DNA of 21,617 bases from a virus. The stretch spans positions 1-21,617 of the IMG/VR virus record IMGVR_UViG_3300046323_000408; one strand, written 5' to 3'. A program made the translations under genes and the position numbers. The notes below the pieces were generated by a model. It was not told the DNA's origin, searched no databases, and saw only the letters and a program-made list of their open reading frames with translations. Each line of letters opens with the position of its first letter. Position 1 is the stretch's first letter. This document shows, in pieces, positions 1,931 through 14,344 of this stretch.

Positions 1931-2191
1931 ATGAAAGACAGAAAAGAAATTATAGACCATTTATTTCAGTCAGCTTGTGGTTATGGTATGGCTGAGGGAA
2001 ATGGAATACAATCTAAGTTTGATGTAGATGGTGATTATATGCCAAATAAATCAGGTGGTACTGTGGAAGGTGGTAAAAAAGCATTTGCTAAATGTATAAA
2101 TGCTATACCAGAAAAATACTTTGAAGATTTTTTATACACTTTGTATAGAATTGCTGATAAAAGTGGTTCTGATGGATTTTCAATAGATTAA
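1931..2191 (+). CDS. Hypothetical protein, 86 aa
   Basis: This is the last gene before the long non-coding stretch. The product is glycine-rich in the middle (GYGMAEGNGI, KSGGTVEGGKK) between a short N-terminal helix and an aromatic helix-like C-terminal half (residues about 60-77). No known domain is recognised. It starts in the window's usual AATAATATG context. Confidence 0.72.
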   Translation: MKDRKEIIDHLFQSACGYGMAEGNGIQSKFDVDGDYMPNKSGGTVEGGKKAFAKCINAIPEKYFEDFLYTLYRIADKSGSDGFSID

Positions 2192-2213
2192 TTTAAAAAT
2201 AATTTGTTTGAGA

Positions 2214-2245
2214 TTTGGATAATATAAATATTTGTTGTACCTTTG
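2214..2245 (+). promoter_or_regulatory. Bacteroidota-type promoter for the structured RNA
   Basis: TTTG at 2214-2217 and TACCTTTG at 2238-2245 are 20 nt apart and match the -33 TTTG and -7 TAnnTTTG elements of the primary sigma factor of Bacteroidota. The predicted transcription start is about 2250, exactly where the first 10-bp helix of the structured region begins (2252). This is the closest match to consensus in the window, so I expect strong transcription by host RNA polymerase. Confidence 0.8.
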
Positions 2246-2251
2246 CATCAA

Positions 2252-2417
2252 TGACGAGAACAACACCAAATATACGTATTATTACAAAGAAATTTGTGGG
2301 ATTTATTACAGAAGAAGTCTGTTAATAGGTTTCATTTTTTTGTTAAACTATTCCCTCTGGGTGCGTATATTTGTAGAAGTTCTCGTCAAACTTACTAATG
2401 AATATTTCCCAGAGGGA
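2252..2417 (+). other. Pseudoknotted 5' RNA domain (three 10-bp helices)
   Basis: TGACGAGAAC 2252-2261 pairs with GTTCTCGTCA 2379-2388, and CAAATATACG 2267-2276 pairs with CGTATATTTG 2364-2373; a 5x5 internal loop separates them. Inside are ACAAA-GAAA-TTTGT (2284-2297, a GNRA-type loop), ACAGA/TCTGT (2308-2312 with 2318-2322) and AATAGGTTT/AAACTATT (2324-2332 with 2345-2352, one bulge). TCCCTCTGGG 2352-2361, within the loop, is perfectly complementary to CCCAGAGGGA 2408-2417 outside the closing stem, which makes a pseudoknot. T2352 is shared by two helices, so one pair must give way. Confidence 0.7.
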
Positions 2418-2422
2418 TTTTT
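2352..2422 (+). terminator. Possible terminator or attenuator arm with T-run
   Basis: The 10-bp perfect inverted repeat 2352-2361 / 2408-2417 is followed at once by a run of five T. This looks like an intrinsic terminator, though the 46-nt loop is long. If it works, it would end a short RNA of about 170 nt and leave the downstream domain to read-through or another promoter. The same arms serve as the pseudoknot helix, so the two readings are alternatives. Confidence 0.35.
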
Positions 2423-2503
2423 GTTTACTTGCCCTATAACTAAGTTTGCCTCAAACAATGTATGAGGACTATTAATGAACATCAGATGACACCTAATCAA
2501 TAT

Positions 2504-2645
2504 GGAAGTCGTTACAACAGTCGTACTATTACGGCTTTGGATAAGGTAATGTTCACCCTTATCAAAATTCCCAGATTGACCGCATTATAACCTTTTAGGG
2601 CTTAGTTTTGACAAATAATGTGCTGGTTCTTATACTCAAACTTCC
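2504..2645 (+). other. Multibranch RNA domain (second domain of candidate ncRNA)
   Basis: GGAAGT 2504-2509 pairs with ACTTCC 2640-2645 (plus a T2503-G2646 wobble) and encloses three hairpins in sequence. These are AGTCGTA 2519-2525 with TACGGCT 2530-2536 (loop CTAT, one wobble), GATAAGG 2540-2546 with CCTTATC 2557-2563, and CATTAT 2583-2588 with ATAATG 2615-2620, the last extended by GACC/GGTT through bulges. TAGGGC 2596-2601 in the third loop could pair with GCCCTA 2431-2436 upstream. The pairings were found by eye, not by folding software. Confidence 0.55.
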
Positions 2646-2667
2646 GATGTACGCAGTTAAACTAAGT

Positions 2668-2714
2668 GGGGAGTTGAGTGATATGACGAAACGTATTTTT
2701 ACTTAATTCACCCC
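2668..2714 (+). other. Long 3' hairpin of candidate ncRNA
   Basis: GGG 2668-2670 pairs with CCC 2711-2713. After one bulged A (2710), GAGTTGAGT 2671-2679 pairs with ACTTAATTC 2701-2709 (two wobbles), and ATATG 2681-2685 pairs with CGTAT 2692-2696 around the loop ACGAAA. CCCCTAC 2711-2717 is also perfectly complementary to GTAGGGG 2758-2764, so the two pairings exclude each other. Confidence 0.5.
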
Positions 2715-2832
2715 TACACTATTGTTCAATTTAAAGCAATTTTTATTTTATTGGGGCGTAGGGGATATTAGTTCCATTCTGAAATGTATGTGTATTATTT
2801 ACACTAAGCTAAAATTTTAATTAAATAAAACT

Positions 2833-3321
2833 ATGGAAGATTTATACAATTTTATACACAATATAATATTTAAAGCAGTAAACAATATTCCTATGAATGG
2901 TAAATACAAACCATATAAGGAATTAGATTTTGAATTGGCTTATACATTAAAACCTTTATTGAAATTTTTTACACAAGAACAATTGCAAGATTATTGTAAA
3001 TGGAGTAAAACTCAAAAAACTTGTTGGGTAAGAAAATCCTTCTATAAAACAATGGAGTATAGAGGATATACTGTACAATGGTGTATATTTGAACCTAAGT
3101 ATAATAAACATGGTATGAGTGCTTTAATTTATACCAAATATGTGTGTTATCATACTAACAATAAGTATAAAGAAGTGGTAATGGGTAAGACTATTAAATC
3201 TGAATTTGTTATGCCAGCTAATTATACAATTCACGAATTTATAAATGGGCATTTATCAAATAAAGAATTTAAAAAAGAATTAGATAAAATAATCAAACGA
3301 GAAAATGAACATACAATTTGA
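2833..3321 (+). CDS. Hypothetical protein, 162 aa
   Basis: This is the first gene after the structured region, starting in the recurrent AAAACTATGG context. The product is basic, with many lysines and tyrosines, a WSK..KTCWVRK stretch near residues 57-68 and a lysine- and glutamate-rich C-terminal helix (residues about 135-160). The positive charge would suit nucleic-acid binding, but no domain is recognised. Its 3' end overlaps the next gene by 17 bases. Confidence 0.75.
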   Translation: MEDLYNFIHNIIFKAVNNIPMNGKYKPYKELDFELAYTLKPLLKFFTQEQLQDYCKWSKTQKTCWVRKSFYKTMEYRGYTVQWCIFEPKYNKHGMSALIYTKYVCYHTNNKYKEVVMGKTIKSEFVMPANYTIHEFINGHLSNKEFKKELDKIIKRENEHTI

Positions 3322-14312: not shown

Positions 14313-14344
14313 TTTGCATAATTGTAGGATTTGTTGTATATTTG
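14313..14344 (+). promoter_or_regulatory. Bacteroidota-type promoter for the ATPase-SSB pair
   Basis: TTTG 14313-14316 and TATATTTG 14337-14344 are 20 nt apart, the same spacing as at 2214 and 4513. Transcription would start near 14350, about 40 bases before the ATPase start at 14390. It gives the ATPase and SSB genes their own supply, as expected for proteins needed in large amounts. Confidence 0.72.

What the first reader, a model, noticed from the sequence alone, without database searches (positions are those of the whole stretch)
2250..2810. Large structured non-coding RNA candidate in a phage early region
Seen: 640 bp with no credible gene in a window where genes otherwise touch, starting with the best promoter here. 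The promoter's predicted start (about 2250) coincides with the first helix, and at least ten helices can be drawn by eye, in three domains. Known: large structured phage RNAs such as ROOL and GOLLD have about this size (500-900 nt) and occur in early or tRNA-rich regions. Inference: this could be a member or relative of such a class, or a new one. I cannot assign it because I do not recall the consensus sequences well enough.
Basis: partly seen in the sequence, partly recalled or inferred. Interest (0 to 1): 0.85.

Follow-up and report, generated by a model that had tools for sequence, protein, structure and literature searches.

The report
Orphan structured RNA in crAss-like phage
A 640-base gene-free stretch in an uncharacterised crAss-like phage starts at a Bacteroidetes-type promoter and begins with a strongly folded, pseudoknotted 170-base RNA domain; it has no detectable relative anywhere searched, so whether it is a free RNA or a long structured mRNA leader is unproven.

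Summary
Between stop 2191 and ATG 2833 no credible gene exists (codon scores negative, GC 34% against 27%, purine skew lost). A Bacteroidetes-type promoter (TTTG 2214, TACCTTTG 2238) puts the start at about 2250, where the first helix begins. The structure is lopsided. Bases 2251-2425 fold far better than shuffles (z -5.1) as nested stems plus a 10-bp pseudoknot; 2426-2810 is near chance (z -1.45). Nothing matches in Rfam (ROOL, GOLLD and 6S included), in phage and plasmid records, or in 1.4 Mb of related loci with a covariance model. The only other copy is 100% identical, so covariation cannot be tested. The phage is an orphan member of Crassvirales. No terminator separates the element from the downstream operon, so I favour a structured 5' leader or leader-derived RNA over a stand-alone RNA. 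"Large RNA class" is not shown. Side result, stronger than the finding: over 40 Suoliviridae crAss-like phage loci carry an unannotated RNA of about 2 kb upstream of DNA polymerase, with strong covariation (12 of 14 pairs in one domain; about 144 of 221 overall) and no Rfam match. The window element is not a detectable member.

The parts
2192..2832 (+). gene-free interval holding the element
   Evidence: ORF list; codon score, GC and skew
2214..2245 (+). Bacteroidetes-type promoter: TTTG (2214-2217), 20-nt spacer, TACCTTTG (2238-2245); predicted start about 2250
   Evidence: strict motif scan of the phage, 18 sites against 5.9 in shuffles; consensus itself from general knowledge
2250..2810 (+). 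candidate structured non-coding RNA, whole
   Evidence: z -4.59 over 2251-2820; rank 17 of 918 580-nt windows of the phage
2251..2425 (+). 5' domain, the well-supported part
   Evidence: z -5.09, 0 of 200 shuffles as good; top 15 of 5350 200-nt windows
2252..2261 (+). P1 5' arm, pairs with 2379-2388
   Evidence: pair probability 0.98; inverted repeat I1
2379..2388 (+). P1 3' arm
2267..2276 (+). P2 5' arm, pairs with 2364-2373
   Evidence: pair probability 0.95
2364..2373 (+). P2 3' arm
2284..2343 (+). inner hairpin P3-P5 (2284-2291/2336-2343, 2296-2307/2324-2335, 2308-2312/2318-2322)
   Evidence: pair probabilities about 0.9
2352..2361 (+). pseudoknot 5' arm TCCCTCTGGG, inside the P2 loop
   Evidence: perfect 10-bp complement; P about 0.017 in shuffles of the region; duplex -19.7 kcal/mol against 13.1 to free the arms
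2408..2417 (+). pseudoknot 3' arm CCCAGAGGGA, 3' of P1; also claimed by a competing long-range pairing with 2770-2787
2519..2536 (+). 3' region hairpin AGTCGTA/TACGGCT
   Evidence: pair probability 0.96; region not above shuffles overall
2540..2563 (+). 3' region hairpin GATAAGG/CCTTATC
   Evidence: pair probability 0.97
2671..2709 (+). 3' region hairpin GAGTTGAGTGA/TTACTTAATTC
   Evidence: pair probability 0.96
1931..2191 (+). upstream gene (86 aa, unknown)
   Evidence: no Pfam or PHROG match
2833..3321 (+). downstream gene (162 aa, unknown); starts about 20-30 nt after the last hairpin with no terminator found between
   Evidence: no Pfam or PHROG match

Best explanation
The interval is transcribed from the promoter at 2214-2245 as the first ~580 nt of the early operon transcript. 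Its first ~170 nt fold into a compact domain: P1 and P2 stacked at the very 5' end, an inner hairpin, and a pseudoknot joining the P2 loop to the sequence just 3' of P1. I infer that this domain seals the 5' end of the early transcript against RNases, and either stays on as a structured, possibly regulatory, leader for the genes from 2833 on or is cut off and persists as a free RNA. Shown: non-coding composition, promoter match, above-chance 5' folding, pseudoknot complementarity, no terminator found. Inferred: transcription, the fold in vivo, protection, any release.
For: Promoter start and first helix coincide. 5' domain z -5.09, and the 25-nt stem is beyond all 120 shuffles. The interleaved 10-bp pairing fits an RNA pseudoknot rather than a DNA cruciform. 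Coding is rejected by codon score, GC and skew. No terminator found before ATG 2833. The genes downstream are packed, and the next strict promoter is at 14313.
Against: Single sequence: no homologue, so no covariation. The 3' 385 nt are barely more folded than shuffles. 580 nt is very long for a plain leader. Other parts of the same phage are more strongly structured, so strong folding alone is not distinctive. The terminator scan uses a simple consensus and may miss this host's terminators.
Confidence: 0.5

Rival explanations
1. A stand-alone, trans-acting large phage RNA of about 560 nt, working like ROOL or GOLLD (self-assembling or ribosome/tRNA-related), the first known member of its own class.
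For: Size, own promoter, non-coding, pseudoknotted. Crass-like phages do carry conserved large structured RNAs.
Against: No terminator found; 3' two thirds weakly structured; no relative; no Rfam match.
Confidence: 0.25
2. A DNA-level element (replication origin, packaging site or operator array) whose inverted repeats act as DNA.
For: Intergenic, in the early/replication region, with inverted repeats and loss of GC skew.
Against: The main inverted repeats are interleaved, which fits an RNA pseudoknot and not a cruciform. Folding is stronger on the + strand than on the - strand (z -2.35 against -0.99 relative to the phage's windows). Cumulative skew flattens but does not reverse.
Confidence: 0.12
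3. Neutral filler or remnant of a lost gene, with a stem-loop that arose by chance or by local inverted duplication.
For: No homologue in any collection; 3' part near background.
Against: 5' stem and pseudoknot exceed shuffles; promoter start sits on the first helix; phages rarely keep 640 bp of filler; no long frame even with stop codons reassigned.
Confidence: 0.1
4. Small or recoded proteins are encoded (77 aa TTG ORF at 2232 or 42 aa ATG ORF at 2462).
For: The ORFs exist.
Against: Codon scores -0.20 and -0.17 against +0.24 to +0.44 for neighbours; composition unlike the genes; the 77 aa ORF starts inside the promoter.
Confidence: 0.03

Closest known systems
ROOL and GOLLD RNAs (phage/prophage large ornate RNAs; PMC12286853)
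   Same: Large non-coding RNA of a phage, about 500-900 nt, pseudoknotted, in a gene-poor interval
   Different: No covariance-model match at E up to 5; no tRNA in the window (nearest two about 13 kb upstream of the window); weak 3' structure; no relatives; no oligomer evidence
Unannotated ~2 kb structured RNA of Suoliviridae crass-like phages (found here)
   Same: Crassvirales, early region upstream of the replication genes, same strand as them, no ORF, raised GC
   Different: Three to four times longer, covariation-supported, conserved in over 40 loci; neither a full-length HMM nor two covariance models of it match the window element
Structured 5' leaders of phage and bacterial mRNAs (5' stem-loops that protect transcripts; general knowledge)
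   Same: Stem at the very 5' end, promoter immediately upstream, no terminator found before the operon
   Different: Far longer than usual, pseudoknotted, no known regulator

Membership tests
ROOL RNA | match to the Rfam covariance model | tested here: not met
   cmscan of the whole window, E up to 5, all 4227 families: no ROOL match, none in 2250-2810
ROOL RNA | position near a phage tRNA island (frequent, not universal) | tested here: not met
   no tRNA in the window; two tRNAs about 13 kb upstream of the window in the parent contig
GOLLD RNA | match to the Rfam covariance model (conserved 3' region) | tested here: not met
GOLLD RNA | self-assembly into a cage | not testable with these tools
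   needs cryo-EM or native gels
6S RNA | match to the Rfam model | tested here: not met
tmRNA / tRNA | ARAGORN or Rfam detection | tested here: not met
Suoliviridae ~2 kb RNA (found here) | match to sequence HMM of the whole element | tested here: not met
   nhmmer on the 134 kb phage: best E about 4, not at the element
Suoliviridae ~2 kb RNA (found here) | match to two covariance models of its conserved domains | tested here: not met
   R1 and R3 recover loci outside their training sets but not the window element
structured 5' leader of an early operon | promoter upstream, no terminator before the first gene | tested here: met
   (simple consensus scans only)
structured 5' leader of an early operon | continuous transcript into the operon | not testable with these tools
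   needs RNA-seq
any conserved structured RNA class | covariation across divergent homologues | tested here: inconclusive
   only a 100% identical copy exists in the collections searched

The most novel reading that the evidence does not exclude
The element is the founding member of a new class of large pseudoknotted phage RNA, a functional counterpart in an orphan crass-like lineage of the ~2 kb RNA of Suoliviridae: Crassvirales would then generally carry giant non-coding RNAs in their early region.
Probability: 0.2. Interest if true: 0.85.

Novelty: new member of a known kind. Interest (0 to 1): 0.45.

Why it matters
Large phage RNAs such as ROOL and GOLLD have no known function (PMC12286853), and none was known to me, or found in the papers searched, for crass-like phages, which are among the most abundant viruses of the human gut. 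The window element alone is a single-sequence candidate. Following it up exposed a covariation-backed ~2 kb RNA in many crass-like phages, which can be probed, imaged and deleted, and which would make the question of what giant phage RNAs do testable in a cultivable group.

Tried and rejected
blastn of the element against phages and plasmids: none. Neighbouring proteins, helicase and terminase as single queries in viral contigs and the polymerase: only same-species contigs or relatives at or below 35% identity, none with the element. Pseudoknot pattern scan: nine unrelated GC-rich hits. Paralogues in the same phage: only a 12-mer ATTGACCGCATT shared with a second non-coding region, not significant. 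Alternative genetic codes: no gene. The E. coli-type promoter scan does not list the promoter, because it is of the Bacteroidetes type. A shuffle-based z-scan of the whole phage timed out and was replaced by regression on dinucleotide content. Literature search for crass-like non-coding RNAs: nothing found, within an open-access library only.

Full report
What was checked. The window is a 21.6 kb virus record. A 130 kb contig (IMGVR_UViG_3300046328_000506) is the same phage: window base 1 is contig base 112299 and the overlap is 100% identical. Portal and terminase match crass-like phage families (phrog_6547, phrog_6681) and the polymerase is nearest to crass-like polymerases (about 31-39% identical), so it is a member of Crassvirales, but terminase identity to any listed record is at most about 26%. 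It is an orphan lineage, which is probably why homologues are scarce.

Non-coding. From 2192 to 2832 no credible gene is found under table 11 or with TAG and TGA reassigned. Codon scores of the two best ORFs are negative where real neighbours are positive; GC rises from 27% to 34%, and the strong G-over-C excess of the coding strand disappears.

Promoter. TTTG-N20-TACCTTTG at 2214-2245 fits the Bacteroidetes consensus (general knowledge) and predicts a start at about 2250. The strict pattern occurs 18 times in 134 kb against 5.9 in shuffled sequence.

Structure. The whole 570 nt gives -144.5 kcal/mol, z -4.59. The signal sits in the first 175 nt (z -5.09): P1 2252-2261/2379-2388, P2 2267-2276/2364-2373, an inner hairpin 2284-2343, and a 10-bp complement 2352-2361/2408-2417 that crosses P1/P2 as a pseudoknot. 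The 25-nt inverted repeat has 21 matches against a maximum of 19 in 120 shuffles; the perfect 10-mer has P about 0.017. Freeing the pseudoknot arms costs 13.1 kcal/mol and the duplex returns 19.7 before any further loop penalty, so it is plausible, but it competes with a long-range pairing of 2402-2419 with 2770-2787. Bases 2426-2810 give z -1.45. Genome-wide, the 5' region is among the top 15 of 5350 windows of 200 nt, but the 580-nt window is only 17th of 918: other non-coding regions of this phage fold more strongly.

Relatives. None: Rfam at E up to 5, phages, plasmids, over 100 loci of crass-like relatives by blastn and nhmmer, a covariance model of the 5' domain against 1.39 Mb and against 11 whole records, and a pseudoknot pattern in all viral contigs. 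The 5'-domain model was built from a single sequence and is of limited reach. Covariation therefore cannot be tested, and the claim of a new RNA class is not established.

Mechanism. No intrinsic terminator was found after the element, the downstream ATG lies 20-30 nt after the last hairpin, and the packed operon has no other strict promoter until 14313. The simplest reading is that the element is the first ~580 nt of the early operon transcript, with a pseudoknotted 5' cap domain. Release as a free RNA is possible and untested.

A larger result found on the way. In more than 40 loci of crass-like phages with a DNA polymerase of this family, an ORF-less gap of mostly 2.0-2.2 kb lies 3-4 kb upstream of the polymerase; annotated records leave it essentially blank. 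An HMM of 32 of them (~1945 positions) aligns along nearly its whole length in over 40 loci. One 88-position domain has 12 of 14 consensus pairs with changes on both sides, 93.8% of cells paired, and a covariation score of 0.77 against 0.20 in shuffles and at most 0.20 when slid. In 16 closer relatives about 144 of 221 consensus pairs (windows overlap a little) show compensatory changes, against few in column shuffles. Models built from two domains recover the element in loci outside their training sets (some of these loci were in the HMM set). No Rfam family matches and no paper on it was found. It is a strong candidate for a new giant RNA class, but the window element does not match it and is not filed under it.

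Noticed in passing
L006 4359-6467, L008 4076-6100, L092 4160-6340, L124 1501-3681 (NC_055893.1 60885-63065) and about 40 other Suoliviridae-type loci: Unannotated, ORF-less ~2.0-2.2 kb structured RNA upstream of DNA polymerase, conserved in over 40 crass-like phage loci with strong covariation and no Rfam match. Likely a new giant RNA class.
   Followed up: yes
L109 13563-14926 (contig 93163-94526, same phage as the window): 1.36 kb non-coding stretch, among the most strongly folded of the phage, holding tRNA-like D-arm and T-arm sequences split by about 130 nt; Rfam tRNA score only 18.5.
   Followed up: partly
L109 10440-11340 (contig about 90.0-90.95 kb): A further ~0.9 kb non-coding, strongly folded + strand stretch next to a RepL-like gene.
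   Followed up: partly
L109 16734-16801 (contig 96334-96401): type-P3 twister ribozyme above Rfam's gathering score in the early region of this crass-like phage.
   Followed up: no
L109 9854-10366, - strand: RepL plasmid replication protein family match (PF05732) in the phage, perhaps plasmid-like replication.
   Followed up: no
L109 1358-6065, - strand: Ribonucleotide reductase large and small subunit ORFs; the small-subunit ORF (649 aa) also matches ribonucleotide reductase profiles in its N-terminal part, suggesting a split or fused arrangement.
   Followed up: no
contig G001 9823-26997, - strand: Single ORF of 5724 aa, probably the giant RNA polymerase-type protein of crass-like phages (identity not tested).
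   Followed up: no
window 14313-14344: Second strict Bacteroidetes-type promoter in the window, just upstream of the Sak4-like gene.
   Followed up: no
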